Assembly: GCF_030253575.1 (NCBI RefSeq) | Contig: NC_080568.1 | Span: 31,647,001-31,711,000 of the forward strand | Reading direction: 5' to 3' | Origin: Rhododendron vialii | Lineage: Eukaryota > Streptophyta > Magnoliopsida > Ericales > Ericaceae | Length of the DNA: 64,000 nt | In this document: positions 22,497 to 51,527 of the stretch, one piece after another | How positions within the stretch are numbered: the stretch's first letter is position 1 | Layout of the letters: each line of letters starts with the position of its first letter | Made by a program: the position numbers and the translations under genes | The notes under the pieces: generated by a model | What the model was told of the DNA's origin: nothing | Databases searched by the model: none | The model's input: only the letters and a program-made list of their open reading frames with translations

Positions 22497-22635
22497 GAGC
22501 CTTCTTTTGTAACACACAATTCCTTATCCGTTATCCACGCCATTCCCAAATTGGGCTCTCGTTTCTCTCTTTCAATCTCTTCGGTTCATATATTCATATA
22601 CACAACACGTAGAATACATCTCTTGATCCTAAAGA

Positions 22636-24845
22636 ATGGCGACTGCGGTTGGGTTTGTTAGCGGCGGTGCTTATGGGTCCTCTTGGATTCGATCGAAGAA
22701 CAAGGCGGTGAGGGGTAGTGACATGGTTTGCCGGGTTTCTTGCGTTTCTTCTTCTACCACGACGAGAGACCCGTACAAGACCCTCATGGTTAAGCCTGAG
22801 GCTTCGAAATCTGAGGTCAAGAAGGCTTTCAGACGGCTTGCTCTTAGGGTATTTTCTCTTTCTTTTGTTGTTCCTTTTTGGAGGATTATTTTTTTTATTG
22901 GTAATGCCTGCGCCAGTTTGCGAACCTTGGACTAATCTCTATAGCCTTCCCTCCGTCGTTTCACATGCTTACCCGTGGAATGATGTGGCCCTAACAATTG
23001 TTTTCAAGAGGAATTGAACTTGAGACACTAGGATGGGGCAAACCCTAAATCCCAAGCCAAGACACTTGGCGGGTTGGATTATTTTCATTTGTTTGTTGTA
23101 GTTTTTATTTTTATTTTTATCTTGTGTTAAGATTAGATTTTTTTTCTTTTTTTGTATTTTCGTGTTTGGTAATTGAGATTGTAGGTAAGTTAAGAATTGG
23201 ATTATTATCTTACGCGAAGTCCAATCCCCTCAAATTTTGTAAAAAGCTTAACTAGTTAACTTCATATGGAGCACAATTTAGATTTGAGTCAAATTCAGGT
23301 CTGCGTCAATGATTGGTAATGTTTATTGTTTAGATTTTGCGAGAACGCTGACTCTGTTAAAAATCATGTTGATCAGATAAAACCAATATATGTTTTTGGA
23401 ACATTTCTTTGTGGACAAAAATAGGTTGGCACGCCGGATTAAAACCCATTCATCTCAATACAAATTGTTTGTTTTTGGATCATGTACTTACCAAATTTCT
23501 GTTGATGAAAAATCTGGTGGTTCATCTTTGATTAGGTGGAATATTAATGTGGGAGCCTATTTGATTTGATCACTTCTTGTTTTATTGTATTTCAGTATCA
23601 TCCGGATGTATGCAGAGGAGGCCATTGCAGTGTCCAATTCCAACGCATCAATGAAGCTTATGATGTATGTTATCAAACCCCACCCCTCTTCTCTCTATTT
23701 TGCTGGCTTTTTTGGTTTTGTGTTTTTCATGGTCATTAGTTATGATCAAAGTTATATGTATGTTGGTTCATATTGTTTGCGTTTTCGCTAACTAGATGGA
23801 CTACAAGCTAATGGTAATAGTCAAGTTGTTTCTGCGTATTTTAGTTTATGTAATAGTCTCGTGTATTTTTTATGGCTAGTTTATTTCTTCGCCGTAATGG
23901 GGTATTTCTTGGGTTGTTTAATATCGAGCTTAGGTCGTCGGTGTTGTGTATTGATTTGGTGTCGTGTATTGTAATTCTTTGAATTAAAATTCTCATGCCG
24001 GTTGACACACATAAAAAAGAGAGGGTAGGAAAACCATCATTGTCATTTGTAGTTGAGGTTGGCTTTTGAGATACACTTGTTGCTTAAACCAAATTGAACC
24101 ATAGCCTAACTTGCCAATAATTGGACCTTTGTTTATGATTACAGTATTGTGTACCTTATTAATCAAATGCCTCGTGCGTTACAAGTTCTTTTTATGGAAA
24201 CAAATAATATTCATAAGCATTAAGCAACCACTTGTGCTTTATGACTTTTGGATAGCCTTTGGTGTTGATATAGACAGCTGAACTGATTAAGGGTAATTTG
24301 GGAGTTCACAATAATCAACATTCTGATCTGGGATGTGATCTTTTTTCACCATAGGATGTTTTGTGTAGAATCTTGAATTTTTGCCCCCCTTAAAGGCTAA
24401 ACCATCAACCTAAATGTGGGCCTTGTTCTCATTGTATATATTCATTTGACTTTGAGGTTTCCCTTTCATCTTTCGGAATCTTCTTTGCAATCTAGATATG
24501 TCGTCTTCATTGCGATTCTGTGATTTATTTGGCTTCACCGTATTGTAATACGTTGTATTGAAGAATTTGCCAAACCTGGTTCGAGTGATCATCATCCCTT
24601 TAGACCAGAATTGAAGTTACAAAAGCCGTTTAGTTTTGTATGACCTAATGGTTTCGTTAATCTGGTATGTGGTGCAGATGGTGATGAGTAATTTGAGAGG
24701 AGAGTTAACCAGGCCAGAGATGAAGATGTACGAGCCATCCGATGCAGGAACTCATGAACGGAAGAGGGGGACGTACGACTGGAACGGTGCGATGGACGAC
24801 CCTTTTTGGGACGAGTCGGACGTATGGTTGGGAGTCGGGATGTGA
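22636..24845 (+). CDS. Small chloroplast J-domain protein (dnaJ 8-like)
   Basis: Three exons, 22636-22848, 23596-23664 and 24678-24845, join in phase 0 to give 149 residues. Residues 1 to about 45 are rich in Ser, Gly, Arg and Lys with few acids, like a plastid transit peptide. The J domain follows: [27 protein letters not shown], the HPD motif at 73-75 ([11 protein letters not shown]) and FQRINEAYD. The short Trp/Asp-rich tail ([14 protein letters not shown]) resembles Arabidopsis chaperone protein dnaJ 8 (J8, At1g80920). J8 has the same size and the distinctive HPDVCRG..C..QFQ.INEAYD block. Such proteins stimulate Hsp70 ATPase in the stroma. Splice sites are canonical and no damage is seen, so the gene looks functional. 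Confidence 0.9.
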
Positions 24846-25049: not shown

Positions 25050-26310
25050 GATTTATATTTTTTAAAGTACGAGTCCACTTTATTAATAAGTCCCAATCAA
25101 ACAAATTATGTCAAGTAGACTCCTGGCTGTACAGCTATACTCTTTAATTTCAGAGAATTACAAAATATGAGAAAGAGAGAAGAAAGCAGGAAATCCATAC
25201 AGGAAAGTGAAGGCAAAACCTATCACTAAGGAGGGGTCCCTTAGGGCCTGTGTTGCTGGGGGTGTTAGGAACGGGGATAAGAGAGGGAGGGGGATAAGGG
25301 CAGGAGAGGGGTAAGGGAGATGGATGGTGTTCGGTGGGGGATAAGGGAGAGGGGGAGAGTTTATGCCCTTGGAGGGGCCTTAGCCAATCCACCTCCTAGG
25401 GTAAGCTTATACGGGTGGGGAGAAAGGAGGGGAAGACCAAATTGACCCTCAAATCTTTTTTGTATTTCCAATGTAATTATTTAATGAGGGCAATTAAGCA
25501 AATTCATACATCATCCACTCTTATCCATCCATATCAAGTACTACTCAAACTAAGTATAAGCTAAACCTCCCTCATAACATATATATCTCTTATCATCCTT
25601 GTTCCTTATCCACCAAAAACATTATCCGTCCGACAAACGGGCCCTTAATAAAGTTCAGGATATTCAGAACAACTTGACCACTAACCACTATTTTATGTTG
25701 AAATACAAGAAGATTTCGTTCCTTCCAAATGAAATAAACAGTAGCAGCCGAGGAACATTTCATAACTAGGCTTTGCCCGTACCTACAGCACTACCCACGT
25801 CGACATGATTACTTGAAAAACAAATTGATGGCATTTTTTGTAATAAATTTGAAAAAGTGGGGGTACATTCTTAAGAGTAGGAGAACACACATTTAGCCAT
25901 TGAATCAATTCAATCCTAACCATTACAACAACTTATCTTTTCAAGGATCCTACACCCTTCGGTTTTGTATTAGATTCTACTCTTGAAACCATCCCCTTCG
26001 ACAGAATGGACAAACTACTCCAGCAAAGCTCCCAATTGGTGGTTGGCCCGGCCCTCCAGTAGAAGACGACTTACTCCACAAAGTGGACCACACAGATGTT
26101 GAAGCATATAAGAGCATTCAAAGAAGAGAATAAGTGCTTATGGGTTTCCTTCTCACAGCCACATAAAGGGCTGGTCTCATCCACAGCCATCCCCCATTGA
26201 TTGATGGGCCATCTGTCCTTAGTACTAAGTTTCTCTTGAGCAGCTAACCAAATGATGAAAGCCCAACGTGGAACATTTTTAGTAAACCAAGCCAATTTTT
26301 TCCAAAGGCT
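25050..26310 (-). mobile_element. 5'-truncated LINE fragment (zf-RVT domain)
   Basis: On the minus strand about 26295-26090 encodes a reverse-transcriptase zinc-binding (zf-RVT) segment: WAFIIWLAAQEKLSTKDRW, then WGM..DETSPLCGCEKETHKHLF. Near 25760-25700 follows the typical LINE C-terminal phrase YFIWKERNEI. A 3' UTR-like stretch ends at about 25050 in an A-rich tail after attaataaag. Frames are broken, so this is a dead L1-type copy. A PIF/Harbinger MITE (25244-25644) was inserted between the coding end and the tail. The 5' limit is uncertain and may extend to about 26600. Confidence 0.65.
25244..25644. mobile_element. PIF/Harbinger-like MITE
   Basis: The ends gggcctgtgttgctgg and gtccgacaaacgggccc are inverse-related, and the element is flanked by TTA on both sides (25241-25243 and 25645-25647). 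TTA is the PIF/Harbinger target duplication. It has no coding capacity and is nested in a LINE fragment. Confidence 0.75.
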
Positions 26311-26840
26311 GAATAGGAAATTTTGTCCTCACTCCTTTAGAGCTAGGAAGCCACACAACCAAATCCTCAGTAGTACGATCAGGATGTAAGGTTGCATGAA
26401 TTTTGGTTGATAATGGATTGAGTGATTCTGTTTCGATCTAGATCTTGGTCACCTCTATTGACCTTGATGGAATATAGACGATATACTTTAGATTCAGGGA
26501 AACACCAAGATCATAAATCACTTCTTCTCCAAACCTTTAGTACAAGGGTTCTAAAGGGTGTCAATTGTCAATCCAAAGGAACGTGGACGGACAATTACTC
26601 TGCAATAAACTAAAGGTTATTATGAGATGAGGCATGGTTTTGCCACTTTTAATCTTTTATTAGCTTGACATGGAGTATTGGGATTAAATCATATGTTTGG
26701 GATCTTTTGTAGTGTACAAGACGGAAGATAAAAGGTTTTGAAAAATAAATAAGGGGACTTGACTTTTATTTTAAGTTGTTAAAAAACATGAATAGATAAA
26801 AAAAATCCAAGTCCTTTTCCTTTATAAAAAATTGGTGAGA

Positions 26841-29767: not shown

Positions 29768-30208
29768 TAACCGGCTCTAATTTCCTCTCCTCGACTCGTT
29801 TGTTCTTGTGTTGTTAATGTAGAAAACAATTAGTGTTTTACGAATCATGCTTAGTGAATTGAGCTCAATCTGTTTAGTACTGTTCATTGGCCGCCGAGTT
29901 CGGGTGGCGAGTATCTGAAGGAGCGAAGAAGCTCCCTTTGTTGGAATAGAATCCCAATTCGGTTCATATGTAGGGTTTCCTGATGAATTTGCTGAATTAG
30001 GAACGGTTCACGTGTTTGTGATTGTTGGCGGTACGATAAAAGAAGTGACTGCTCATAAAACAAGTTTCAACTTCGAAGTTCAGAGATTTAACGCGTTTTA
30101 GCTGTAATTATTCCGGAAAAGGTTCCAATTTTAATTAAGAAGACGAGGTAGATTAGCAAACAGAGTGAATAAAGAAGATAAGGAACAATAGGCGGGTACA
30201 ATGAGGAT

Positions 30209-30654
30209 TGTTGCGGAAACTAAGGACCAAACCAGAACACAAACACACACACAAACACAGAGACAAAGATTTACGTGGTTCCCCAAAATCGGGTACATCC
30301 ACGGGGGGCAGCCGGATTATATTTAGGAGGAGGAGGATTACAAATCACTCTAACTCACACTCACTCACAGACTGATACAAATGCATACATATGCAGCTCT
30401 CAAACTCTCACTGATTTTCCCACACCAAATACAAGTGCAGAAGGCTCAATTTATAGGCAAAGAATAGAGCCCTGTTCAACAGCCATGCTTATGGCATTAA
30501 TTTCAAACCATGCGTGAGATCTTCTGCAAATGTGCAGATCTTTCCATTGTCAAGAAAGACTGCTAGTCTTTGACAAACAAGAATGGGCAGATCTTTCCAT
30601 TGTCAAGAAAGACTGCTAGTCTTTGACAAATGAGAATGAAGCCAAATCTCAACA
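30209..30654 (-). repeat. Copia LTR (left outer, minus orientation)
   Basis: A 446-bp LTR starting TGTTGCGG and ending ATCTCAACA on the plus strand, which is TGTTGAG..CGCAACA in element orientation. It differs from the other two LTRs at only one or two positions. It contains two tandem copies of a hairpin-forming motif. Confidence 0.95.
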
Positions 30655-30708
30655 ATCTCCACCTTGGCGACAATTCTCCAAAGGTCCGATGCTGCCCCCA
30701 ATGCGCCC

Positions 30709-33700
30709 TTAGGCGCTCTGAACCGGAGAGATGTTGATCAAGTCCAAACAATGATTGAACTTGATCCCAGTAACAACCTTCGTCAACATATCAGCTGGGT
30801 TGTCTGCAGTGGCAATCTTCTCAAGCAATATGTCCCCTTCTTCTAGAATTTCCCGAACAAAGTGAAAACGGACATCTATATGCTTTGTCCTGGTATGGTG
30901 CACCTGATTCTTTGCCAAATGAATGGCACTCTGACTATCGCAATAGACATTGATGTGCTCCTGTTTGGCACCCAAATCACCAATCAAACCCTGCAACCAG
31001 ATGGCTTCTTTTATGGCCTCAGTCACAGCCATATATTCAGCCTCCGTAGTAGATAGTGCAACCGTGGACTGTAAAGTCGAACGCCAACTAACTGGTCCTC
31101 CTGCCATAGTGAAAACATAACCAGTAATTGACCGCCTCTTATCCAGATCACCAGCGTAATCTGAATCTACATAACCAACTGCAAGCTGATCACCAAATTT
31201 CTGATCTCTCCCAAATTTTAGGCCAACATTAACTGTGCCCTGAATGTATCTAAGAATCCATTTCACAGCCTGCCAGTGACCCTTTCCTGGATCATGCATA
31301 TATCTACTAACCATACTGACAGCGTGTGAAATATCGGGTCTGGTACATACCATTGCATACATCAAGGATCCCACAGCGTTGGCATACGGAACTTGGGCCA
31401 TCTGTTTTCGTTCCGCATCAGTACGAGGTGACATCGAAGCGCTGAGCTTAAAGTGCGGGGCTAATGGTGTACTCACGGGTTTAGCTTTGCCATCTATGCC
31501 AAACCGTTGAAGTACAGTCTTCAGATACTGAGTCTGCGATAAGCAAACTGTGCCCTGCTTCCTGTTGCGCTGAATCTCCATCCCAATGACCTTCTTTGCT
31601 TCTCCAAGGTCTTTCATTTCGAATTCTGAACTCAGTTGTGCCTTCAACCGAGAAATCTCCACCTTGCTCTTAGATGCAATTAGCATATCATCAACATATA
31701 AGAGCAAATAGATAAAGGAACCATCCCGAAGTTTACGAAAGTAAACACAATGGTCAAAACTGCTGCGAGTATACCTCTGCGTAGCCATAAACTGATCAAA
31801 TCTCTTGTACCATTGTCGTGGCGACTGCTTTAGGCCATATAGTGACTTGCGAAGACGGCAAGCCCAATTTTCCTTTCCGGAGACCTTGAAACCATCTGGT
31901 TGTGACATATAGATCTCTTCGTCCAAGTCGCCGTGCAAAAATGCAGTCTTAACATCGAGTTGCTGTAACTCGAGGTCGTACTGCGCAACCAAAGATAATA
32001 GAATGCGGATCGATGCATGCTTCACCACCGGAGAGAAGACCTCATTGTAGTCAATCCCTTCGCGCTGAGCATAACCCTTTGCCACCAATCTGGCCTTATG
32101 TCTAACACCACCCTTGACCGAACTGTCCTCTTTGTTGGCGTAGACCCATTTGCATCCTATTGCTTTATTCCCTTTGGGAAGTGGTACCAGCTCCCAAGTC
32201 TTATTCTTGTGAAGAGAACTCATCTCCTCATTCATAGCCTGCTTCCATTGAGAACTGTCAGAACCTGAAACGGCCTCCCTATACGTATTCGGAACACCTG
32301 TGATAACCGAAAGGGCGTATGCAACCATACCATCATATCGGGCAGGTTTTCGAATCTCCCTCCTCGGACGGCTAGTAGCAATAGACTGTGTTGGCGCTAT
32401 AGCCTCGGGAACTGAAACATCATCAGACTCAGAACTTGAATCTGAAACATCACTGTGGTGCTCCTGTGGTGGCGAAATGGTAGGAACTTGAACTACAGGA
32501 ACCTCTAGCTCCACCTGCTCTGACTGCTCCACCTGATCTGAACACCCTGGAATGGTGTTAACCTTTCGAGAGTTGGTTTGAAGCATGGCCGACTCATCGA
32601 AAGTAACATCTCGGCTGGTAATAATCTTCTTAGACTCCGGGCACCAGAGTCTATAGGCCTTTACACCTGGAGTAAAGCCAACAAATATAGCCTTCCTAGC
32701 TCGAGGATCCAGCTTAGATTCTGTGACATGAAAATAAGCAGGACAACCAAATACATGCAGCCGATCGTAATCAATCGAAGATTGACCAAAATATACCTCC
32801 ATGGGAGTCCGTCCGCCAAGTGCCTCTGACGGTAGCCTGTTGATCAACTGACAGGCATAGGCGACTGCCTCTCCCCAAAATACTTTGCTCAAACCGGCGT
32901 TGGACAACATACACCGCACCTTAGTCACCAAAGTACGGTTCATCCTCTCTGCAACTCCATTTTGCTGTGGAGTCTTCGCTGCGGTGAAATGTCGGACTAT
33001 CCCCTCCTCCTGACAGATTTTGAGAAAGGGATCTGAAGTATACTCACCACCGTTGTCTGACCGAAGTACCTTGATTTTTCTGCCAGTCTGAGTCTCCACC
33101 CTCTGCTTCCAACGGAGGAAAGTGTCAAGGACCTCATCCTTGCGTTGCATGGGATAAACCCATACTCTCCGTGAAAAATCATCAATAAACGTGACAAACC
33201 ACCGTTTGCCACCAAAAGTTGCTGTCATTGTGGGCCCCCAAACATCTGAATGAACATAATCCAGAATACCCTTCGTACAATGAACTGCGGTGCCAAATTT
33301 GACCCTGGTCTGTTTGCCCAGAACACAGTGCTCACAGAATCCAAACTTCCCTGTCTTGGCCCCCTTAAGGAGACCTTTCTTCATCAATCCTTGTAAAGCT
33401 TTCTCTCCGGCATGACCTAGGCGCATGTGCCAGAGTCGGGAAATGTCATCTGTAGCATCATCTGAGCTGCTGCTGGAGATGGCTACTCCTCCTGTAACTG
33501 TGCGCCCGTCGAGGAAGTATAAATTTCCTCTCCGAGTGCCTTTCAGGACCACTAATGCACCATGGGTTACTTTCAGAGCTCCACCTTCTAAAGTAATCTT
33601 GTAACCTTTTGCATCCAAGGTTCCAAGAGAAATCAAATTTTTCTTCAAATCCGGGACATACCGGACATCTGTCAAAAGCTTGGTTGTACCGTTGCGCAAC

Positions 33701-34827
33701 TTGAGTCGGATTGTACCTATCCCCTGAGTTTTGCAGGCATTGTCATTGCCCATCAAAACTACGCCACCGTCAATCTCTTGAAAGTTTGAGAACCAGTCCC
33801 GATGGGGACACATATGGTAGGTACATCCCGAGTCCAGAATCCATTCATCTGAATTTGTGTCTGATGAAACAATCAAGGCTGATGCCAAGTCGTCAACCTC
33901 TCCTCTTGCAACATTTGCTCGTTGTTGTTGTTGTTCCTTGATTTTGGGGCAATCCTTCTTCCAGTGCCCCGTTTCATGACAGTAAGCACACTCATCCTTT
34001 GCAATCTGCTTCCTATCACCGGATTTCTGATTCCTTTCAGCTGATTTGCCTTTTGACCTGGACCTGGACTGTCTCCTCCCGGACTGTCTATTCCTCGATT
34101 CAGTCCTTCCCCTTACTGATAGTGCTGATGAAGAGGGATCCCGATGAACTTGTTGATCCTTCTTCCGTACCTCGTTGTTAATCAAAGTAGAGCAAACGTC
34201 ATTAAAACGAATTTCATCTTTTCCATACAGTAAGGTAGTAACCAAGTGGTCATATGTATCAGGCAAAGAATTTATCAACAAAAGTGCCTTATCCTCATCG
34301 TCAATTTTAACATCAAGGTTTTGCAAATCGGCCAAAATTTTATTGAAACTATTTAGATGTTCGTTCATTGACGCACCTTGTTGATACTGAAAACGATACA
34401 GTCTCTTCTTCAGGTAGAGTCTGTTCTCTATGCTCTTCGTCATGTACTTGCTCTCTAATTTCTGCCACAACTCCTTGGCTGAATTGTCCCTCATGACGGA
34501 ATACTTGATGTCTTTGGACAAACAAAGACGGATCGTGCCACAAGCTTGCCGATTAAGCTTGTCCCAATCGGAGGTGGACATATCCTCAGGACGATCCTCC
34601 AAAGTGAATTCCAAATCTTGTTGATTTAGAATATCCAAAACTTCGCATTGCCACATGCCGAAGTTAATTGTGCCATCGAACTTATCCACTTCGAATTTGG
34701 CATTCGAAACCGAGGTCCTCCTCATGTAGGAACTGACCGAGGGCTCGTCTGAAGTCTTCTTATCTGATGATTTGTCCATAGGTGTTGAAGAAACAACACT
34801 AGGGCTCTCCTCGTCGATGCTGGACAT
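30709..34827 (-). CDS. Copia gag-pol polyprotein (copy 1)
   Basis: A 1372-residue uninterrupted frame with the same domain order as copy 2: Gag, CCHC zinc knuckle, aspartic protease, GAG-pre-integrase, integrase, reverse transcriptase, RNase H. It differs from the copy 2 protein at about two residues. The order protease, integrase, RT, RNase H defines Copia, and the Gag and Pol sequence style resembles tobacco Tnt1. Confidence 0.95.
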
Positions 34828-35526
34828 CCAACGAAGTCAAAAGCGAGAGTTTTACCGCTGAAAATACTCCCAACAGATTTTTCGGAACGGAATCTCGAAA
34901 AACGGGGCACGGGGTTGGATCTGGAACGTCGAGATAGTCAAAATCGACTACTCACGGGCGAAAAACGGAGTCCGGACGGCTCCGAAAACACAGAAAACAA
35001 ATTTTAGGAAAATTCTGCTGACTGGATGATTGACTGGACCACTTTTGCTGAGGTGTCGAACACGTGGCACCCACCTGGCGCTGACGTGGAATGACATGCG
35101 GACTGCTGACGTGGTTGATGACTCAGCACATATGGGTCCCGTTTGGTGACGTGTCTGATGACTGGGCAGGTGATGTGGCGGATGACAGCGCCATGTGGTA
35201 CTGATGGAGCGATGACATGTTGCTGACTGGATGATGACATCTTGCTGATGTCATCGTCTTCAACCTGCAGTTGCGCGTGGAAACGTATCACAAGCGCGTC
35301 AGATTCATTTTCTGATTTGACTGCTTAAGCGCAACTTTGACCGGGAAGGTGTGGTTCACCCCGACGTCGGATGAAGGCTTATTATACCTTCCCGAAATCG
35401 TCTCGACGAGACGAACAAGATGGACAGATTAGATCGTATTTTCGAGCTGTTTCGAAAAAACGCAGATTCGAACAGAGGCAAAAACAGAATGTTGCTTTGT
35501 GTTTTGGCTTCCCAAGCTCTGATAAC

Positions 35527-35972
35527 TGTTGAGATTTGGCTTCATTCTCGTTTGTCAAAGACTAGCAGTCTTTCTTGACAATGGAAAGATCTGCCCATTC
35601 TTGTTTGTCAAAGACTAGCAGTCTTTCTTGACAATGGAAAGATCTGCACATTTGCAGAAGATCTCACGCATGGTTTGAAATTAATGCCATAAGCATGGCT
35701 GTTGAACAGGGCTCTATTCTTTGCTTATAAATTGAGCCTTCTGCACTTGTATTTGGTGTGGGAAAATCAGTGAGAGTTTGAGAGCTGCATATGTATGCAT
35801 TTGTATCAGTCTGTGAGTGAGTGTGAGTTAGAGTGATTTGTAATCCTCCTCCTCCTAAATATAATCCGGCTGCCCCCCGTGGATGTACCCGATTTTGGGG
35901 AACCACGTAAATCTTTGTCTCTGTGTTTGTGTGTGTGTTTGTGTTCTGGTTTGGTCCTTAGTTTCCGCAACA
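35527..35972 (+). repeat. Copia LTR (central, shared)
   Basis: A 446-bp LTR, TGTTGAG to CGCAACA. It is followed directly by att and tggtatcagagc, the usual plant initiator-Met tRNA primer-binding site. It is the 5' LTR of copy 2. Its outer edge abuts the leader of copy 1. Confidence 0.95.
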
Positions 35973-36674
35973 ATTGGTATCAGAGCTTGGGAAGCCAAAA
36001 CACAAAGCAACATTCTGTTTTTGCCTCTGTTCGAATCTGCGTTTTTTCGAAACAGCTCGAAAATACGATCTAATCTGTCCATCTTGTTCGTCTCGTCGAG
36101 ACGATTTCGGGAAGGTATAATAAGCCTTCATCCGACGTCGGGGTGAACCACACCTTCCCGGTCAAAGTTGCGCTTAAGCAGTCAAATCAGAAAATGTATC
36201 TGACGCGCTTGTGATACGTTTCCACGCGCAACTGCAGGTTGAAGACGATGACATCAGCAAGATGTCATCATCCAGTCAGCAACATGTCATCGCTCCATCA
36301 GTACCACATGGCGCTGTCATCCGCCACATCACCTGCCCAGTCATCAGACACGTCACCAAACGGGACCCATATGTGCTGAGTCATCAACCACGTCAGCAGT
36401 CCGCGTGTCATTCCACGTCAGCGCCAGGTGGGTGCCACGTGTTCGACACCTCAGCAAAAGTGGTCCAGTCAATCATCCAGTCAGCAGAATTTTCCTAAAA
36501 TTTGTTTTCTGTGTTTTCGGAGCCGTCCGGACTCCGTTTTTCGCCCGTGAGTAGTCGATTTTGACTATCTCGACGTTCCAGATCCAACCCCGTGCCCCGT
36601 TTTTCGAGATTCCGTTCCGAAAAATCTGTTGGGAGTATTTTCAGCGGTAAAACTCTCGCTTTTGACTTCGTTGG

Positions 36675-39600
36675 ATGTCCAGCATCGACGAGGAGAGCCC
36701 TAGTGTTGTTTCTTCAACACCTATGGACAAATCATCAGATAAGAAGACTTCAGACGAGCCCTCGGTCAGTTCCTACATGAGGAGGACCTCGGTTTCGAAT
36801 GCCAAATTCGAAGTGGATAAGTTCGATGGCACAATTAACTTCGGCATGTGGCAATGCGAAGTTTTGGATATTCTAAATCAACAAGATTTGGAATTCACTT
36901 TGGAGGATCGTCCTGAGGATATGTCCACCTCCGATTGGGACAAGCTTAATCGGCAAGCTTGTGGCACGATCCGTCTTTGTTTGTCCAAAGACATCAAGTA
37001 TTCCGTCATGAGGGACAATTCAGCCAAGGAGTTGTGGCAGAAATTAGAGAGCAAGTACATGACGAAGAGCATAGAGAACAGACTCTACCTGAAGAAGAGA
37101 CTGTATCGTTTTCAGTATCAACAAGGTGCGTCAATGAACGAACATCTAAATAGTTTCAATAAAATTTTGGCCGATTTGCAAAACCTTGATGTTAAAATTG
37201 ACGATGAGGATAAGGCACTTTTGTTGATAAATTCTTTGCCTGATACATATGACCACTTGGTTACTACCTTACTGTATGGAAAAGATGAAATTCGTTTTAA
37301 TGACGTTTGCTCTACTTTGATTAACAACGAGGTACGGAAGAAGGATCAACAAGTTCATCGGGATCCCTCTTCATCAGCACTATCAGTAAGGGGAAGGACT
37401 GAATCGAGGAATAGACAGTCCGGGAGGAGACAGTCCAGGTCCAGGTCAAAAGGCAAATCAGCTGAAAGGAATCAGAAATCCGGTGATAGGAAGCAGATTG
37501 CAAAGGATGAGTGTGCTTACTGTCATGAAACGGGGCACTGGAAGAAGGATTGCCCCAAAATCAAGGAACAACAACAACAACGAGCAAATGTTGCAAGAGG
37601 AGAGGTTGACGACTTGGCATCAGCCTTGATTGTTTCATCAGACACAAATTCAGATGAATGGATTCTGGACTCGGGATGTACCTACCATATGTGTCCCCAT
37701 CGGGACTGGTTCTCAAACTTTCAAGAGATTGACGGTGGCGTAGTTTTGATGGGCAATGACAATGCCTGCAAAACTCAGGGGATAGGTACAATCCGACTCA
37801 AGTTGCGCAACGGTACAACCAAGCTTTTGACAGATGTCCGGTATGTCCCGGATTTGAAGAAAAATTTGATTTCTCTTGGAACCTTGGATGCAAAAGGTTA
37901 CAAGATTACTTTAGAAGGTGGAGCTCTGAAAGTAACCCATGGTGCATTAGTGGTCCTGAAAGGCACTCGGAGAGGAAATTTATACTTCCTCGACGGGCGC
38001 ACAGTTACAGGAGGAGTAGCCATCTCCAGCAGCAGCTCAGATGATGCTACAGATGACATTTCCCGACTCTGGCACATGCGCCTAGGTCATGCCGGAGAGA
38101 AAGCTTTACAAGGATTGATGAAGAAAGGTCTCCTTAAGGGGGCCAAGACAGGGAAGTTTGGATTCTGTGAGCACTGTGTTCTGGGCAAACAGACCAGGGT
38201 CAAATTTGGCACCGCAGTTCATTGTACGAAGGGTATTCTGGATTATGTTCATTCAGATGTTTGGGGGCCCACAATGACAGCAACTTTTGGTGGCAAACGG
38301 TGGTTTGTCACGTTTATTGATGATTTTTCACGGAGAGTATGGGTTTATCCCATGCAACGCAAGGATGAGGTCCTTGACACTTTCCTCCGTTGGAAGCAGA
38401 GGGTGGAGACTCAGACTGGCAGAAAAATCAAGGTACTTCGGTCAGACAACGGTGGTGAGTATACTTCAGATCCCTTTCTCAAAATCTGTCAGGAGGAGGG
38501 GATAGTCCGACATTTCACCGCAGCGAAGACTCCACAGCAAAATGGAGTTGCAGAGAGGATGAACCGTACTTTGGTGACTAAGGTGCGGTGTATGTTGTCC
38601 AACGCCGGTTTGAGCAAAGTATTTTGGGGAGAGGCAGTCGCCTATGCCTGTCAGTTGATCAACAGGCTACCGTCAGAGGCACTTGGCGGACGGACTCCCA
38701 TGGAGGTATATTTTGGTCAATCTTCGATTGATTACGATCGGCTGCATGTATTTGGTTGTCCTGCTTATTTTCATGTCACAGAATCTAAGCTGGATCCTCG
38801 AGCTAGGAAGGCTATATTTGTTGGCTTTACTCCAGGTGTAAAGGCCTATAGACTCTGGTGCCCGGAGTCTAAGAAGATTATTACCAGCCGAGATGTTACT
38901 TTCGATGAGTCGGCCATGCTTCAAACCAACTCTCGAAAGGTTAACACCATTCCAGGGTGTTCAGATCAGGTGGAGCAGTCAGAGCAGGTGGAGCTAGAGG
39001 TTCCTGTAGTTCAAGTTCCTACCATTTCGCCACCACAGGAGCACCACAGTGATGTTTCAGATTCAAGTTCTGAGTCTGATGATGTTTCAGTTCCCGAGGC
39101 TATAGCGCCAACACAGTCTATTGCTACTAGCCGTCCGAGGAGGGAGATTCGAAAACCTGCCCGATATGATGGTATGGTTGCATACGCCCTTCCGGTTATC
39201 ACAGGTGTTCCGAATACGTATAGGGAGGCCGTTTCAGGTTCTGACAGTTCTCAATGGAAGCAGGCTATGAATGAGGAGATGAGTTCTCTTCACAAGAATA
39301 AGACTTGGGAGCTGGTACCACTTCCCAAAGGGAATAAAGCAATAGGATGCAAATGGGTCTACGCCAACAAAGAGGACAGTTCGGTCAAGGGTGGTGTTAG
39401 ACATAAGGCCAGATTGGTGGCAAAGGGTTATGCTCAGCGCGAAGGGATTGACTACAATGAGGTCTTCTCTCCGGTGGTGAAGCATGCATCGATCCGCATT
39501 CTATTATCTTTGGTTGCGCAGTACGACCTCGAGTTACAGCAACTCGATGTTAAGACTGCATTTTTGCACGGCGACTTGGACGAAGAGATCTATATGTCAC

Positions 39601-40793
39601 AACCAGATGGTTTCAAGGTCTCCGGAAAGGAAAATTGGGCTTGCCGTTTTCGCAAGTCACTATATGGCCTAAAGCAGTCGCCACGACAATGGTACAAGAG
39701 ATTTGATCAGTTTATGGCTACGCAGAGGTATACTCGCAGCAGTTTTGACCATTGTGTTTACTTTCGTAAACTTCGGGATGGTTCCTTTATCTATTTGCTC
39801 TTATATGTTGATGATATGCTAATTGCATCTAAGAGCAAGGTGGAGATTTCTCGGTTGAAGGCACAACTGAGTTCAGAATTCGAAATGAAAGACCTTGGAG
39901 AAGCAAAGAAGGTCATTGGGATGGAGATTCAGCGCAACAGGAAGCAGGGCACAGTTTGCTTATCGCAGACTCAGTATCTGAAGACTGTACTTCAACGGTT
40001 TGGCATAGATGGCAAAGCTAAACCCGTGAGTACACCATTAGCCCCGCACTTTAAGCTCAGCGCTTCGATGTCACCTCGTACTGATGCGGAACGAAAACAG
40101 ATGGCCCAAGTTCCGTATGCCAACGCTGTGGGATCCTTGATGTATGCAATGGTATGTACCAGACCCGATATTTCACACGCTGTCAGTATGGTTAGTAGAT
40201 ATATGCATGATCCAGGAAAGGGTCACTGGCAGGCTGTGAAATGGATTCTTAGATACATTCAGGGCACAGTTAATGTTGGCCTAAAATTTGGGAGAGATCA
40301 GAAATTTGGTGATCAGCTTGCAGTTGGTTATGTAGATTCAGATTACGCTGGTGATCTGGATAAGAGGCGGTCAATTACTGGTTATGTTTTCACTATGGCA
40401 GGAGGACCAGTTAGTTGGCGTTCGACTTTACAGTCCACGGTTGCACTATCTACTACGGAGGCTGAATATATGGCTGTGACTGAGGCCATAAAAGAAGCCA
40501 TCTGGTTGCAGGGTTTGATTGGTGATTTGGGTGCCAAACAGGAGCACATCAATGTCTATTGCGATAGTCAGAGTGCCATTCATTTGGCAAAGAATCAGGT
40601 GCACCATACCAGGACAAAGCATATAGATGTCCGTTTTCACTTTGTTCGGGAAATTCTAGAAGAAGGGGACATATTGCTTGAGAAGATTGCCACTGCAGAC
40701 AACCCAGCTGATATGTTGACGAAGGTTGTTACTGGGATCAAGTTCAATCATTGTTTGGACTTGATCAACATCTCTCCGGTTCAGAGCGCCTAA
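36675..40793 (+). CDS. Copia gag-pol polyprotein (copy 2)
   Basis: A 1372-residue open frame. Gag occupies residues 1 to about 275, the CCHC knuckle is at 280-293 and the protease DSG is near 332. The GAG-pre-integrase HLGH-type region (MRLGH) is near 470, the integrase core spans about 500-670 ([15 protein letters not shown]), RT about 870-1110 (YVDDML near 1045), and RNase H about 1215-1350 (DSDYAG). This is the Copia order in one frame, with no internal stop. Its function is replication of the element through an RNA intermediate. Confidence 0.95.
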
Positions 40794-40847
40794 GGGCGCA
40801 TTGGGGGCAGCATCGGACCTTTGGAGAATTGTCGCCAAGGTGGAGAT

Positions 40848-41293
40848 TGTTGAGATTTGGCTTCATTCTCATTTGTCAAAGACTAGCAGTCTTTCTTGAC
40901 AATGGAAAGATCTGCCCATTCTTGTTTGTCAAAGACTAGCAGTCTTTCTTGACAATGGAAAGATCTGCACATTTGCAGAAGATCTCACGCATGGTTTGAA
41001 ATTAATGCCATAAGCATGGCTGTTGAACAGGGCTCTATTCTTTGCCTATAAATTGAGCATTCTGCACTTGTATTTGGTGTGGGAAAATCAGTGAGAGTTT
41101 GAGAGCTGCATATGTATGCATTTGTATCAGTCTGTGAGTGAGTGTGAGTTAGAGTGATTTGTAATCCTCCTCCTCCTAAATATAATCCGGCTGCCCCCCG
41201 TGGATGTACCCGATTTTGGGGAACCACGTAAATCTTTGTCTCTGTGTTTGTGTGTGTGTTTGTGTTCTGGTTTGGTCCTTAGTTTCCGCAACA
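40848..41293 (+). repeat. Copia LTR (right outer)
   Basis: A 446-bp LTR, 3' LTR of copy 2, TGTTGAG to CGCAACA. It is closest to the left outer LTR, with about one difference. Its right flank is gagct. Confidence 0.95.
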
Positions 41294-41752
41294 GAGCTCA
41301 TATTCATGATAGAGCTTGGATCCTAAAACCACTAGTCAATATGGAAAAATGAAAACAAATATTTGTTTTTGCTATTAAGTTGCTGATTGTCTCGAAAAGT
41401 TTAAGCTGTTAGGGAATGGTCAATAATATAAAAGGAAGTATGGAGATGTGTAATAAATTCCCTCATGTGTTACACCATCTTGGATGTGGAGATGCAAATG
41501 GTCATACGGAGAAATGTAATCTAAACGAAAAGAAGTGCAATCAGAGAACAGATGTAACCAGAGAGACTTCAATTCACAACCTCTTCGCTATAAAACCATG
41601 CTATGTAAGCAATTAGTATTAAGCTTCTATGAAGTGGGTCAAACAAAGAATATCAAGCCATCAAAGGTTTACGTATGGAAAAAAGTTTTTGCTTATCTTA
41701 ACTATTCTCATTTCATTTTGTCATTCCTTGCAGCATTCAAAGTTCCATATCG

Positions 41753-44640
41753 ATGGCAGACCTCAAAGAACGCCTGCTCCCGCCAAAAACTGCTTCGGTC
41801 GCCAATCTTAGAGATTCATCTTATCGCCCCTCTGCCTCTGTGCATCAACCCTTTCATGGCGTGGATGTTACAGGCTTGAAAAAGCGTGGCCAAGGCCTTC
41901 GATCGTGGATCCGGGTTGATGCATTAGGGAATTCCCAAGTCATCGAAGTTGACAAGTTCACTATAATGCGTCGATGTGATCTTCCTGCACGAGACCTACG
42001 CCTGCTTGATCCGCTATTTGTGTACCCCTCAACAATCCTTGGCAGGGAGAAGGCTATTGTCGTAAATTTGGAGCAGATTCGATGTATTATCACGGCTGAT
42101 GAGGTTCTGCTTTTGAATTCGCTTGATAGCTATGTGTTTCAGTATGTGGTGGAGCTACAAAAGCGATTGACAACTGCAGGGGTGGGTGAGGTTTGGCGGT
42201 CAGAAGGTACTGACTTGAGTAGCAGGAGTGGAAATAGGAGTTTTGATAGTTTGTTTGGGAGCACGTCGCCTGATTACTTGCCCTTTGAGTTTAAGGCTCT
42301 TGAAGTTGCTCTAGAGGCTGCTTGTACTTTTCTGGATTCACAGGTGCGTGGCAGAACAGATTGTAGGATGCATATGTTTGAAATTTATGGCAACGAACAG
42401 TTTATATGCACATAAGTTGTGGCATGACTGAGATCCTTATGAAAGCTAAATACTTTAGTTTCTAGACCCTGCCACACTTGAGAGAAAATCATTGGAGACT
42501 TCCCTATCTTAAAGGCTACATTTCATGAAGGTCTTCCGACATTTTGTTTCCCAAAATTTGAGAAGGCATTTTCCTAAAGATTTTGGTGGCGACATTACAT
42601 TTGGATTACGACTACTTAGGCCTTTTGTTGGCATTCGCTCGTCTTTGGCGCCCTTATATTTTCTGGTGATAGCATAGTTTCTGTGTCTTTTGTGTGTTGC
42701 GGATCAGTGCTCTGTGTTTTATGTTCCTTAGACCTTTATTGGTCTTCGCTCGTTGCCGGCGCTCTTTATCTTGTGGCAATAACACAGTTGTACTTTTCTT
42801 GCTATGAATGAAGTTTCTCACACTTCCACCAAAAAAAAAGAAAGAAAAGGATATCTCATGCTGCATCTTATGTATATAACTAGCTTTAGGTCCTATAATG
42901 TGGAAAATGGAAAGAATTGGTCAACTTGGGAGTTTGCTGGTTTCGCATTGGTGAACATTAAATTTTTTGGAGGTAGAGTGATCTTTGAGTGAAATATATC
43001 TACGAATTAGACTCTAAAACTGGAAATGATTGGTTAATTTGTCCTTGTTGGATTGCTAGCTCTCTTTCTGATGCAACATGTGAGTATATTATTGTTTATT
43101 GCTTGCATTGCCTCTCAGTCAAAAGTTGGTTCCTTGTGGGTTTTTACAGTTTGTGTATTAGTCATTTATGAATTAATCAGGCAGCGGAATTGGAAATTGA
43201 AGCATATCCACTTCTAGATGAACTGACATCAAAGATCAGTACCTTAAACTTGGAGCGTGCACGGCGACTGAAAAGCAGACTTGTTGCCCTAACTCGACGA
43301 GTACAGAAGGTTTTTGTACTTCTCTGCGATTGGTTTTCCATTTCTGTCCCCAAGGGCACATATCTCTGATTCCTCCTCCCCCTCTCCATTTTCGTGTAGG
43401 TTAGAGATGAGATAGAGCAGCTAATGGATGATGATGGAGATATGGCTGAAATGTACCTCACTGAAAAGAAAAGGCGGATGGAGTTATTTTTCTCTGGGGA
43501 TCAATCTGTAACGGGATTCAGATCTTCTGACGGTGTTCAATCTGTTTCTGCTCCAGTTTCTCCTGTCTCTTCACCCCCTGATGGTAGTAGGAGGCTCGAG
43601 AAGAGCTTGAGCATTGCCAGGAGCAGACAGAGTGCGAGGAGTACAGAAAGTGGGACAGAGAGGATTGAAGAACTGGAGATGTTGTTGGAGGCTTATTTTG
43701 TTGTCATTGACAGCACCCTCAACAAGTTGACATCTGTATGTACTCTAATTGTTATGCTTGCTTTTGTCTTCTTTACTTACCGTTAATTTAGTTGGAAACA
43801 GTTTATCAAATCAGTTTATTTTTTCCTTCATTTCAGCTGAAGGAGTACATTGATGACACGGAAGATTTCATCAATATTCAGCTGGTATGAATCCTTACCA
43901 TCTCAGCTAAAACATGAGTAGATTAAATATAGATTATGGGTATACAATACTTTATTTAACTTAAGTATAGACAAATTAAGTGTGTTGGTGCTGCTTTGCT
44001 AGTTATTAATTGGGAACTATCATATGGTTCTAGAATGAAATGGCATTTTAAACTTAAGCAAAAATGCATATTATGCTTTCTTTCCAAAGTTGACCGATGT
44101 GACAGCTTTTGATTGGGTTCTGTTTGAGTGGGGCATATCAGCTTCCAATCGTGAGCTGTCACGTCATTGAGTTGTAGACTTATATTTCACTGTTCCAAAG
44201 TTAAATATTCCTTTATAAGTACCCTTAAATTGCAAGTAAAGCAGGTTGTAGCGGGAGCTTTTCGATTGACTAGCAATAAGCTCATTTTTGAACAATAACA
44301 GAAAGCATTCTACGAGATCATTGTTATGTTGTTGAAGATTGACGAGAAATCAAAGAGCATGTCTGGGTTCTGAGATATTGATTGGGAGTTTCTGTTATGC
44401 GGTTTTCAGGATAGTGTCCGAAACCAGCTTATCCAGTTTGAGCTGCTGCTAACAACCGCAACGTTTGTCGTTGCCATCTTCGGAGTGGTAGCGGGTATAT
44501 TTGGCATGAATTTTCCAATAGCTTTGTTTGATGACGCGGGTGCATTCAAATGGGTGCTACTGATAACTGGAGTAACAGGGGCTTTCATATTTTGTTCATT
44601 CTTGTGGTTTTACAAGCATAGAAGACTGATGCCGCTGTAA
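41753..44640 (+). CDS. Magnesium transporter, MRS2/CorA family (MRS2-1-like)
   Basis: Five coding exons, 41753-42343, 43181-43309, 43400-43735, 43837-43884 and 44410-44640, give 444 residues (Arabidopsis MRS2-1 is 442). The N-terminal cytosolic part has the family phrases GLKKRGQGLRSWIRVD, RRCDLPARDLRLLDP and YPSTILGREKAIVVN. Coiled-coil helices follow (LPFEFKALEVALEAAC, EAYPLLDELTSKIS). Two C-terminal membrane helices flank the signature GMN at residues 400-402 (IFGMNFP). GMN forms the pore selectivity motif of CorA/MRS2/ALR channels. Members occur as pentamers in tonoplast or other membranes and carry Mg2+. The start is the first ATG after a clear acceptor at 41733, which makes the upstream exon non-coding. 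All splice sites are canonical and the gene appears intact despite the 11-kb retroelement upstream. Confidence 0.95.
42600..42840 (+). mobile_element. LINE/SINE-like tail in MRS2 intron 2
   Basis: Two tandem, diverged units share cctt(t)(t).ttgg..ttcgctcgt, a ggcgc box and aacacagtt (about 42620-42680 and 42732-42790). They are followed by tgaatgaagtttctcacac and an A-rich end near 42840. This is typical of a plant non-LTR retrotransposon 3' end. No target duplication was verified. Confidence 0.4.
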
Positions 44641-46490: not shown

Positions 46491-47088
46491 GAAAGGACTC
46501 CAAGAATAATGATTTTATAATGAATAAGTGCGCAAATTGTAGGGGACGACCCCAGTTGATAATTTCGATGGAAGAGGTTGTCAATCGTGTGGGTAAAAAT
46601 ATTGCAATGGAAAAAAAGAAAACTGGAAAAGAATGCCCGGAGGTTTGCATTTCGCAGTCGGGTCCAATTGTGGCTCGGTTGTAGGACTGTTCTTCGGTTA
46701 TCAAAAAAAGCATTGTGAATAAAACAATGGTATCAACACAACTACATCGGGAGCCGTTCAATGCATATGAGTCCATATGCATCGAATGGATTGTGTTTTG
46801 GCCTTTAACCTGAAGGGATTCGTTTCTTTTTAACCAATGCCGGGATTTAAGAGCTTGATCCCTCTTAGGTTTAATGTTCAAAATTTTTTCTAGGCGATAT
46901 CAATTGATCGTATGTGGCTAGTCTATACAAGGCTTTCCTCTAGCTTTCAATTGGCCAGCCCCGCTGCTGAACGGTATGACGGGTCTCTTAAAAATTAGTA
47001 GCGGTGCTCGTAAGTTGATCCAGACACTAATTTATAAAAGAATGAGTTGGCCTTTCTTTCTTCAGTAGAAAGGTGGGAACGAAGGTAC

Positions 47089-47095
47089 TATAAAT
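47089..47095 (+). promoter_or_regulatory. TATA box of OMT A
   Basis: The motif tataaat is followed by tgattggctctgg, 59-65 bp before the ATG at 47154. The same block precedes OMT C and, slightly altered, OMT B. Its conservation across three paralogues supports its being the core promoter. Confidence 0.7.
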
Positions 47096-47153
47096 TGATT
47101 GGCTCTGGTTCTTAATTCCCTAGAAAGAAGAAGAGCAATTGCATAGAAAAAAC

Positions 47154-48804
47154 ATGGAGCCGAGTTACGGTACTGTCAGTAAAGAAGAAGAAGAGAATTG
47201 TCTCTATGCAATGCAATTGGCAAGCTCCTCAGTGCTGCCAATGGTGCTGAAGGCAGCAGCGGAGTTGAAAGTATTCGATATCATAGCCAAGGCAGGTCCC
47301 GGAGCGCAACTCTCCCCCTCTGAAATCGCGTCTTGTTTGCCCAATTCATGCAACCCGGGCGCACCAGAAATGCTGGATCGGATGCTGCGCCTCCTGGCCA
47401 GCTACTCGATTCTCGTGTGCTCAGAACTATCCTCTGATCAGCCCCCTCCTGCTGCCCTAGTCGGGCAGAGGAGGTTGTATGGGCTGGCGCCCGTGGCCAA
47501 GTACTTTGTTTCCGACCAAGACGGAGTCTCGTTGGGGCCTTTCTTGTTTTTGCTTCAGGACAAGGTCTTCATGGACAGCTGGTAATTCATTCATGTTCAT
47601 ATTCATATTCATGTCTATAGTTCCTCTGCTCTATAATTTCCGAATTTTCGTACGAATTTAAAGATCTCATTTAGTTATGAACTAAATTATTTAGGTACGA
47701 ACTAAAAGGGGCGGTAGCGAAAGGGGGAATCCCATTTGATAAGGTTCACGGGATGCATGCGTTCGAGTACCCAGGGAAGGATCCCAGGTTCAATGAGGTA
47801 TTCAACAAGGCCATGATCAACCACACCACGATTGTGCTCAGCAAAATCTTGCAGTCCTCGTACGAGGGTTTCGAGCAAGTTCAGAAGCTTGTCGATGTCG
47901 GCGGCGGTCTTGGAGTCACCCTCAACTTGATCACTTCCAAATACCCACATATTAAGGGTGTTAATTTTGACCTTCCACATGTGATCCAACATGCTCCGTT
48001 CTATCCCGGTACAATTTATGATTCATTTCTATTTGATTATTAAAAAAGTGCAACAAGCAGCTATGGTAATACAAATTCGATGCAGGTGTGGAACATGTTG
48101 GAGGGGATATGTTTCAAAGTGTACCCAAAGGAGATGCCATCTTCATGAAGGTAAGTTTTATTTTTCAAACCACTCATGTATATATCACCTTATATGTCCA
48201 TGGGGTAAAAAAATGATCATTAACCAGAAAGCTTTGAATTTTCAGAAATAGTGTTTTTTGTTCTCGGAATCGGGATTCTTGTAGTGCACTACTCTGTAAT
48301 GCATCATGTGCCCTACCCTGTCGTGTAATTGGTGTCCAGATGCGCACTACAGGGTGCATTACAGGTAGCGCACTACATGACGCTTGGGTCTTTTTTCACA
48401 AAGTTAACTTTGTCAACACTTAGAAAAGGATAAGATATTTTCCGTTAATGACGCATCGATCTAATGTAACTAATGATGACAATGGCGATGTCTGCGGTGA
48501 TACGTAGTGGATACTTCATGATTGGAGCGATGATCAATGCCTGAAGTTGCTAAAGAATTGTCACAAAGCTCTACCAGACAATGGGAAGATAATTGTGGTG
48601 GAGGGAATTCTCCCAGTGATCCCAGATAGTAGCGCTGCAACCAAAGGCATTTTCCAACTCGACTTGGTGATGATGACTCAAAACCCTGGAGGGAAGGAGC
48701 GCACGAAACAGGAGTTTGTGGCCCTTGCCACTGGAGCTGGGTTTTCTGGCATCAGATTGGAATGCTTTGTCTGCAACTTTTGGGTCATGGAATTTTACAA
48801 GTAG
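47154..48804 (+). CDS. COMT-like O-methyltransferase A
   Basis: Four exons, 47154-47581, 47695-48008, 48086-48150 and 48508-48804, give 367 residues, the normal plant COMT length. The N-terminal dimerisation domain runs to about residue 120. SAM-binding motif I is LVDVGGGLG at 208-216, with [10 protein letters not shown] and GGDMF further on. The catalytic His is in WILHDWSDD (His273), with supporting Glu301 (VVEGILP) and Glu333 (NPGGKERT). Known family role: SAM-dependent methylation of a phenolic hydroxyl in the cytosol. Relative to lignin COMT, the pocket Asn of NQDKV is Leu (LLQDKV) and the His of FEYHG is Pro (FEYPG), so the substrate is probably not caffeic acid or 5-hydroxyferulate. 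The start ATG is shared with C. Introns have GT-AG ends; the gene looks intact. Confidence 0.93.
48280..48376. mobile_element. Short MITE in OMT A intron 3
   Basis: A 97-bp element with ends tgtagtgcactac..gtaatgca and the related inverse (gtagcgcactaca, tgcattac). The same element is at the same place in OMT C (57241-57338) and absent from OMT B. This shows that A and C share a more recent common copy. Confidence 0.6.
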
Positions 48805-48960
48805 TAGTGTGTGTCCCGCCTATATAGACTTGAGCTACAACTTGCATTAATTCCTATTATGGTTTCTGTTTAAGAAAAATAAAATGGTAAGAGCAGCTAA
48901 TCGAGGATTTCAATGTTTGTATTCGGGAATGTATGGTTTTTTTCCGTCATTTATAACACG

Positions 48961-49790: not shown

Positions 49791-50340
49791 ATAACTTGTT
49801 GGGCTCGTACCAGGACCTCAAACCAAACACACTCACGAATCAAACAAGAGAGAAACACAAAAACTTCCGAGATAAAATTTCCACTCTAATCACAATAGTT
49901 TACAAAAACGCTCACCGGAGGAGGAGCGTCCACTCACCGGAGCTCTCGTCTGGAAATGAATTACGGTATATCTCATTTGAAAAAAAAAAAAAAAAAAAAC
50001 CTCCTTCAGTTGAACAAGGAATACTTGTAAATGGACCTCTGTTGGATCGTTGTCGAACTTGCACTGTTGTCTTCGTCTTGTCAAGCCGAACCAACTTTCT
50101 GAGATCAAAAACTATTTGTGATCACTTTGATCTCGGTCCCAAGTTTCAAACAGTGGCCTGAAAAACTGGGTTCTTCGTCATAAAACGGCAGCAGAAAGCG
50201 GGTTCGTCACCGGTGTTCTGATACCATTGAAGAGTGGAAGAGTAAAATTTTCACACACTAATATTCACAATTTTATTATATGAGACCAAAGCACAAATTA
50301 CAAAGGATTTCCCGCCTGGAAATCTCTGTCTGTCTGTCTG

Positions 50341-51246: not shown

Positions 51247-51527
51247 TGACAGAGTGTCTGTCTGTCTGAGAGAGAGACAGATCTATTGGCATACATACAA
51301 CAAACTATGGTGACCATTTGATCATCTCCAAATCTGACCCACCGAAAGCTACTCCTAATTGCACACACACCCCTACTTTTACAAACTCATTCAATAGCCT
51401 CCGAATTAGGTCATAGTTTTGGACCCGATGTGGCCATATGGGGACACAAATTGGGAGTGTATAGAGGAGCTCAACCTAATTAATTACATCCCTCGATCAG
51501 CAGAAAAGGTGGAAATGGATATAATCC

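What the first reader, a model, noticed from the sequence alone, without database searches (positions are those of the whole stretch)
30209..41293. Head-to-head pair of Copia copies sharing one central LTR (11-kb palindrome)
The order is LTR(-), internal(-), LTR(+), internal(+), LTR(+). The two internal regions are inverse copies about 5 kb long and nearly identical, separated only by one 446-bp LTR. The leader of copy 1 runs into the outer edge of the central LTR in its primer-binding-site region, and no 5-bp target duplication was found at the outer or inner edges. Simple successive insertion would give four LTRs and duplications. A rearranged reverse-transcription product, an autointegration-like event, recombination between inverted copies, or an assembly error would each explain it. 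Without a target duplication I cannot choose.
Basis: partly seen in the sequence, partly recalled or inferred. Interest (0 to 1): 0.75.

Follow-up and report, generated by a model that had tools for sequence, protein, structure and literature searches.

The report
Palindromic double retrotransposon with shared LTR
Two nearly identical copies of a plant jumping gene lie back to back around one shared end-repeat, and the breakpoints suggest they were glued together as unfinished DNA copies before or while entering the chromosome, although one sequence alone cannot prove it.

Summary
Window 30209-41293 is LTR(-), internal(-), LTR(+), internal(+), LTR(+): arms of 5,316 nt with 5 mismatches, three 446-bp LTRs, an intact 1,372-aa Ty1/copia ORF in each copy. 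No 5-bp target duplication links the three free LTR edges.

Copy 1 stops at its primer-binding site (PBS), 3-5 nt short of the LTR border, and meets the exact U3 terminus of the central LTR without using homology. A minus-strand cDNA halted before second-strand transfer would end there; a random breakpoint falls within 5 nt of that border with chance about 0.002.

Best explanation: a one-LTR, PBS-ended cDNA was joined to the U3 end of a full-length cDNA (end joining, or a hairpin with the LTR as loop), then captured without a target duplication. Two-step insertion, integration of one cDNA into another, recombination and misassembly fit less well; none is excluded. Mildly against: the central LTR is more diverged than the arms. 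The host is an unnamed plant whose genome is not held, so neither an empty site nor sister copies could be sought.

The parts
30209..30654 (-). LTR-L, 3' LTR of copy 1, 446 bp; no private differences among the three LTRs
30655..35526 (-). internal region of copy 1, 4,872 nt, lacks the first 3-5 nt of the leader/PBS and any 5' LTR
30709..34827 (-). gag-pol ORF of copy 1, 1,372 aa, intact; Pfam order gag, Pol_BBD, pre-integrase, rve, SH3-like, RVT_2 (Ty1/copia order)
35516..35532 (+). central junction: PBS end of copy 1 (read as its complement ...CTCTGATA), 2 unexplained bases AC, then exact U3 terminus TGTTGAG of the central LTR
35527..35972 (+). LTR-C, 5' LTR of copy 2, 446 bp; two private differences (LTR positions 24 and 199)
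35973..40847 (+). internal region of copy 2, 4,875 nt, with intact LTR-AT-PBS border
35975..35986 (+). primer-binding site TGGTATCAGAGC of copy 2 (match to plant initiator Met tRNA 3' end is recalled)
   Evidence: for the sequence; tRNA identity recalled
36675..40793 (+). gag-pol ORF of copy 2, 1,372 aa, intact; two residues differ from copy 1
40848..41293 (+). LTR-R, 3' LTR of copy 2, 446 bp; one private difference (LTR position 212)
30201..30208 (.). left outer edge; the two bases next to the LTR's U5 end read AT in element orientation, as in the LTR-AT-PBS of cDNA; no target duplication
41294..41303 (.). right outer edge GAGCTCATAT; no match to the left edge in the place of a target duplication

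Best explanation
This is one composite insertion made from reverse-transcription products of a young Ty1/copia element. Copy 1 is the one-LTR cDNA that exists before second-strand transfer (internal region plus 3' LTR, ending at the PBS). Its PBS end was joined to the U3 terminus of a full-length copy. The partner was either a second cDNA from the same particle, or the plus-strand LTR of the same molecule. In the latter case the product is a hairpin with the LTR as loop and the internal region as stem, which becomes a palindrome when copied. Joining was by end joining, with loss of 3-5 nt and about 2 unexplained bases. The composite, whose two outer ends are both U5 ends, then entered the chromosome without a target duplication, most likely by capture at a break rather than by integrase. 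Shown: the anatomy, the exact junctions, the missing target duplication, the near identity. Inferred: the cDNA stage, the joining enzyme, the break capture.
For: Copy 1 ends at its PBS, where minus-strand cDNA ends before second transfer, while the partner ends exactly at TG of U3. The chance that a random breakpoint in copy 1 lies within 5 nt of that border is about 0.002. All three free LTR edges are at the LTR termini, yet no pair of edges shows a target duplication. The central join does not use the homology on offer: the parental borders read GATACCAAT|TGTTGCGG and GGAGAT|TGTTGAG, the junction GATA-AC-TGTTGAG. The left U5 end is followed by AT, as in unprocessed cDNA (chance 1/16). The arms differ at only 5 of 5,316 sites, LTR-L has no private change, and the one coding change that can be polarised by Pfam score looks derived in copy 2, so nothing marks copy 1 as older. 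Literature precedent: at yeast breaks, nearly 4,000 of about 33,000 inserts were complex (2-4 fragments, most of them mitochondrial), minus-strand Ty1 intermediates are said to be insertable, and 40 of 56 wild-type 3'-LTR inserts carried nucleotides present only in cDNA (PMC10802722, passages). Second-strand transfer is reported to use alternative end joining at PBS microhomology (PMC12786077, a review, passages).
Against: The central LTR carries 2 private differences in 446 bp against 5 differences in both 5,316-nt arms (Fisher p 0.03, Poisson 0.019; C-R against arm-arm p 0.019; C-L against arm-arm p 0.097; uncorrected). All LTRs should start identical in this model, so this needs chance or later arm-to-arm conversion. 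Taken alone, C-R divergence (3 of 446) gives an age some five times that from all 7 differences. The right U5 edge lacks the AT seen on the left. The hairpin and two-molecule versions cannot be told apart. No second copy of the junction, no empty site and no reads were available.
Confidence: 0.55

Rival explanations
1. Two steps: copy 1 was a resident full element, and a new cDNA used integrase with its two ends at two different sites, U3 in copy 1's PBS and U5 in the right flank. The stretch between them (copy 1's 5' LTR, its target duplication and some flank) was lost.
For: Explains three exact LTR edges and no target duplication with integrase chemistry (edges).
Against: The PBS hit would be chance (about 0.002) unless PBS is a preferred target. 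Copy 1 shows no sign of greater age: LTR-L has no private change.
Confidence: 0.15
2. Integration of one cDNA into another inside the particle (autointegration-like, between two molecules): the U3 end of cDNA 2 attacked the PBS region of cDNA 1 as a half-site event, and the joint molecule was later inserted.
For: Exact U3 terminus at the central join. Autointegration is known for Ty1; I saw this only as a passage and a cited title in PMC12786077.
Against: Half-site joining does not by itself explain the 2 odd bases and missing 3-5 nt, nor the missing target duplication at the outer edges.
Confidence: 0.12
3. Two independent head-to-head insertions whose facing parts were lost by deletion or by recombination, or a U3-to-U3 dimer that lost one LTR of an unstable LTR-LTR palindrome.
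For: Missing target duplications are what recombination of two insertions predicts (Sabot and Schulman, PMC1950507). LTRs start TGTTG and end CAACA, so a 5-bp repeat was available. An excess of differences in the central LTR would also be natural if it came from another insertion.
Against: A deletion through that TGTTG repeat would leave GATACCAATTGTTGAG, not GATAACTGTTGAG. The deletion would have to stop at the PBS on one side and at, or within the 2 unexplained bases of, a U3 terminus on the other.
Confidence: 0.1
4. Assembly error joining two loci or haplotypes.
For: Long inverted repeats are hard to assemble; no reads were available.
Against: The junction shows no overlap to mislead an assembler and the window has no N. 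Arms and LTRs differ at 7 sites in all, so it is not one copy pasted twice.
Confidence: 0.08

Closest known systems
Three-LTR complexes attributed to template switching in Triticeae, rice and maize (Sabot and Schulman 2007, PMC1950507, whole text read in two parts, figures not held)
   Same: Two internal regions and three LTRs, one LTR shared; outer LTRs alike; attributed to faulty reverse transcription
   Different: The described complexes each have one stated orientation and a 5-bp target duplication; here the copies are inverted, copy 1 ends at its PBS, and no duplication is present
Tandem LTR-retrotransposon arrays in plants (PMC11899658; abstract, one methods section, discussion and passages read)
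   Same: Copies share an internal LTR, plant host
   Different: Described as tandem arrays flanked by target duplications; a word search of its main text gave 0 for 'head', 'opposite' and 'palindrom', and 'inverted' twice, the shown place being a cited title
Capture of Ty1 cDNA and replication intermediates at double-strand breaks in yeast (PMC10802722, passages read)
   Same: Reverse-transcription intermediates inserted, fragments joined end to end; extra cDNA-only nucleotides at LTR ends
   Different: Yeast, induced break, fragments, and the multi-fragment inserts were mostly mitochondrial; here two near-complete copies and no way to see the break
Integrase-independent retrotransposition of Tf1 (described in PMC12786077, passages; original paper not held)
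   Same: Involves PBS sequences, gives multi-copy insertions
   Different: Uses homology and gives tandem copies; the central join here does not use homology

Membership tests
Ty1/copia LTR retrotransposon | integrase upstream of reverse transcriptase in one polyprotein with copia-type gag | tested here: met
   Pfam order Retrotran_gag_2, Pol_BBD, gag_pre-integrs, rve, SH3_retrovirus, RVT_2 in both ORFs
Ty1/copia LTR retrotransposon | LTR TG..CA, PBS next to 5' LTR, purine tract before 3' LTR | tested here: met
   copy 2: all present, read by eye; copy 1: 3' LTR, purine tract and partial PBS only
Ty1/copia LTR retrotransposon | 5-bp target duplication at insertion | tested here: not met
   AGGAT, ATAAC, GAGCT; bears on how the insertion happened, not on the element's family
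Template-switching complex (Sabot and Schulman) | three LTRs, one shared, outer LTRs nearly identical | tested here: met
   L-R differ at 1 of 446
Template-switching complex (Sabot and Schulman) | flanking 5-bp target duplication | tested here: not met
Template-switching complex (Sabot and Schulman) | both copies in one orientation | tested here: not met
   arms inverted
Recombinant complex of two insertions | no flanking target duplication, outer LTRs from different insertions | tested here: inconclusive
   no duplication but outer LTRs are the most alike of the three pairs
cDNA capture at a double-strand break | no target duplication, non-homologous joins, cDNA-only end bases | tested here: inconclusive
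   first two met; AT at one of two outer ends only
cDNA capture at a double-strand break | empty allele showing the broken site | not testable with these tools
   own genome not held

The most novel reading that the evidence does not exclude
A chromosomal fossil of failed second-strand transfer: the PBS end of minus-strand cDNA was ligated to the U3 end of the plus strand of the same molecule, giving a hairpin cDNA with an LTR loop that was copied into an 11-kb palindrome and inserted. The resulting inverted repeat of an intact young element could also give double-stranded RNA and silence its family, as inverted-duplicate silencing loci do (recalled).
Probability: 0.2. Interest if true: 0.75.

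Novelty: new variant of a known kind. Interest (0 to 1): 0.45.

Why it matters
The plant LTR-element complexes described in the papers read here are nested or tandem. A head-to-head pair whose join lies at PBS and U3 terminus would show that reverse-transcription intermediates, not only finished cDNA, reach plant chromosomes. It would also give a sequence signature (internal region starting at PBS, joined inversely to an LTR start) that can be counted in any long-read genome. Two intact gag-pol copies in inverted repeat about 460 bp from an MRS2-type gene could also matter for silencing or for that gene, which is untested.

Tried and rejected
Target duplication of 3-7 bp at the three free edges, and shared direct 5-7-mers within 20 bp of them: no left-edge k-mer recurs at the other two edges; two 5-mers (AGCTC, TGATA) are shared between central and right edges, in no useful position. 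The two outer flanks share an inverted 5-mer (ATGAG / CTCAT) 3 nt outside each outer LTR edge; five bases at one offset, seen after the fact, and no model here predicts it. Remnants of the element in either flank (457 and 459 nt, both strands): all four scores lie below the best of 60 shuffles. A PBS-like AGAGCTTGG lies 17 nt outside the right LTR. About 1% of 5,000 random 40-nt stretches match the PBS as well as the right flank does; the left flank is ordinary (95%). It was seen after the fact, and the intervening 17 nt do not fit PBS-homology insertion, so I left it as a lead. Relatives of the ORF in viral contigs: no pattern match. MRS2-like protein in the PDB: no hit at 0.001. Six of ten paper searches used head-to-head, palindrome or inverted terms; one search returned no paper. 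None of the titles and abstract openings listed showed a head-to-head pair with one shared LTR, but most subscription journals are missing from the library and I did not open every listed paper. Words searched in PMC3907296 and PMC3522557 gave nothing useful. Autointegration of a single molecule was rejected because it cannot double the internal region (inference). Age, using recalled plant mutation rates: about 0.05-0.09 My from all 7 differences, 0.26-0.48 My from central against right LTR alone; indicative only.
Full report
Observation. The window holds one large inverted repeat. Self-BLAST gives arms 30209-35524 and 35978-41293, 5,316 nt, 5 mismatches and no gaps; the repeat finder gives the same pair a few nt longer at each end. 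The order is LTR(-) 30209-30654, internal(-) 30655-35526, LTR(+) 35527-35972, internal(+) 35973-40847, LTR(+) 40848-41293. Each LTR is 446 bp and starts TGTTG and ends CAACA. Both internals carry an intact 1,372-aa ORF. Its Pfam domains, in order, are copia-type gag, Pol_BBD, gag pre-integrase, rve, SH3-like and RVT_2, which is Ty1/copia order. Two ORF residues differ between copies. One lies in RVT_2, where copy 1 scores 253.2 bits and copy 2 250.9 bits, so the copy 2 state looks derived.

Junctions. There are three free LTR edges. The five bases outside them are AGGAT (left), ATAAC (before the central LTR) and GAGCT (right); none match. The central junction is informative. Copy 2 has the normal border LTR-AT-TGGTATCAGAGC. 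Copy 1 begins GT-TATCAGAGC, so it has lost 3 to 5 nt of the leader and the whole 5' LTR. Its other side is the exact TG terminus of the central LTR. The parental borders (GATACCAAT|TGTTGCGG and GGAGAT|TGTTGAG) share ATTGTTG, but the junction does not use that homology: it reads GATA-AC-TGTTGAG. If copy 1 had been cut at random, the chance of falling within 5 nt of its LTR/internal border is about 0.002.

Meaning of the junction. In LTR-element reverse transcription (established knowledge) the minus strand, after its first transfer, runs to the PBS and stops; it then has one LTR only. The plus strand begins at the U3 terminus. Copy 1 ends where the first of these ends, and copy 2 begins where the second begins. 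I therefore take the join to have happened between cDNA ends. Two versions remain. In one, two molecules were joined. In the other, the minus-strand 3' end was joined to the plus-strand 5' end of the same molecule, giving a hairpin with the LTR in the loop and the internal region as stem; copying it would give this palindrome. The data do not separate them. In both, the two outer ends are U5 ends. The left one is followed by AT, as in the LTR-AT-PBS of cDNA; the right one is not. That agreement has a 1 in 16 chance and is weak.

Precedent read here. PMC10802722 (passages) reports insertion of Ty1 cDNA at yeast breaks, states that minus-strand intermediates can be inserted, counts nearly 4,000 complex inserts of two to four fragments among about 33,000 (most of the complex ones mitochondrial), and finds nucleotides present only in cDNA in 40 of 56 wild-type 3'-LTR inserts. 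PMC12786077 (a review, passages) describes work in which alternative end joining at PBS microhomology carries out second-strand transfer, and an integrase-independent pathway. PMC10462705 (passages) reports truncated and chimeric copia eccDNA in Arabidopsis mutants. PMC1950507 (whole text) describes three-LTR complexes. Template-switching ones have target duplications and alike outer LTRs; recombination ones lack duplications. The present structure has alike outer LTRs without a duplication and is inverted, so it matches neither class fully. PMC11899658 (abstract, one methods section, discussion, passages) describes tandem arrays in the parts I read.

Divergence. Private LTR differences are L 0, C 2, R 1. 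Arms differ at 5 of 5,316 sites. The central LTR looks more diverged than the arms: Fisher p 0.03 against both arms together (Poisson 0.019), 0.019 for C-R and 0.097 for C-L against arm-arm, all uncorrected. A cDNA origin predicts equal starting LTRs, so this is mildly against it unless the arms exchange sequence or it is chance. It is also not what an older resident copy 1 predicts, since LTR-L has no private change. With recalled mutation rates the total of 7 differences suggests roughly 0.05-0.09 My, and the central-right LTR pair alone 0.26-0.48 My.

Flanks. A DnaJ-type exon lies at 22633-22935 (Pfam 26.3 bits, just under the 27.8 cut-off) and an MRS2-type gene starts at 41753. I recall that the Arabidopsis genes At1g80920 (DnaJ) and At1g80900 (MRS2) are near neighbours. 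That would argue that both flanks belong to one ancestral locus and that no large rearrangement took place here; this rests on memory, not on a call. No trace of the element was detected in the 457-459 nt next to either edge.

Assembly. The window has no N, the arms and LTRs differ, and the junction shows no overlap. A misassembly is therefore unlikely but cannot be excluded without reads. The host genome is not held, so no empty site, no other copies with the same join and no relatives could be examined; a pattern scan of viral contigs found none.

Verdict. The structure is real as sequence and unusual. I favour joined reverse-transcription products captured without integrase (0.55), with two-step and half-site routes behind it. 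It is a new variant of the known class of complex LTR-element insertions rather than a new kind. Its value is as a testable signature of failed second-strand transfer.

Noticed in passing
50342-50517 and 51071-51246: Inverted repeat of 176 nt, 98% complementary, 553 nt apart, with a second inner pair 50607-50696 / 50832-50921 (84%); looks like a foldback or MITE-like element inside an O-methyltransferase cluster.
   Followed up: partly
46708-57919: Three O-methyltransferase dimerisation-domain ORFs (47124, 51608, 56084) with a 95.9% identical 2.26-kb duplication 46708-48958 / 55666-57919: a recent tandem gene duplication.
   Followed up: partly
41311-41319: PBS-like 9-mer AGAGCTTGG 17 nt outside the right LTR; about 1% of random window stretches match the PBS as well; meaning unclear.
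   Followed up: partly
30201-30205 and 41297-41301: Inverted 5-nt match (ATGAG / CTCAT) lying 3 nt outside both outer LTR edges; chance or a trace of the insertion, unexplained.
   Followed up: no
30529-30638, 35543-35652, 40864-40973: A 53-bp unit repeated 2.1 times inside each of the three LTRs.
   Followed up: no
26071-26328 (-): zf-RVT domain remnant, probably a decayed LINE, left of the palindrome.
   Followed up: no
41753-43786: MRS2-type magnesium transporter exons starting about 460 bp from the right LTR, which has the same orientation and could influence the gene.
   Followed up: no
3547-6636 (-), 62077-62553 (+), 63444-63764 (-): Ankyrin-repeat, plastocyanin-like and terpene-synthase exons: an ordinary plant gene neighbourhood.
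   Followed up: no
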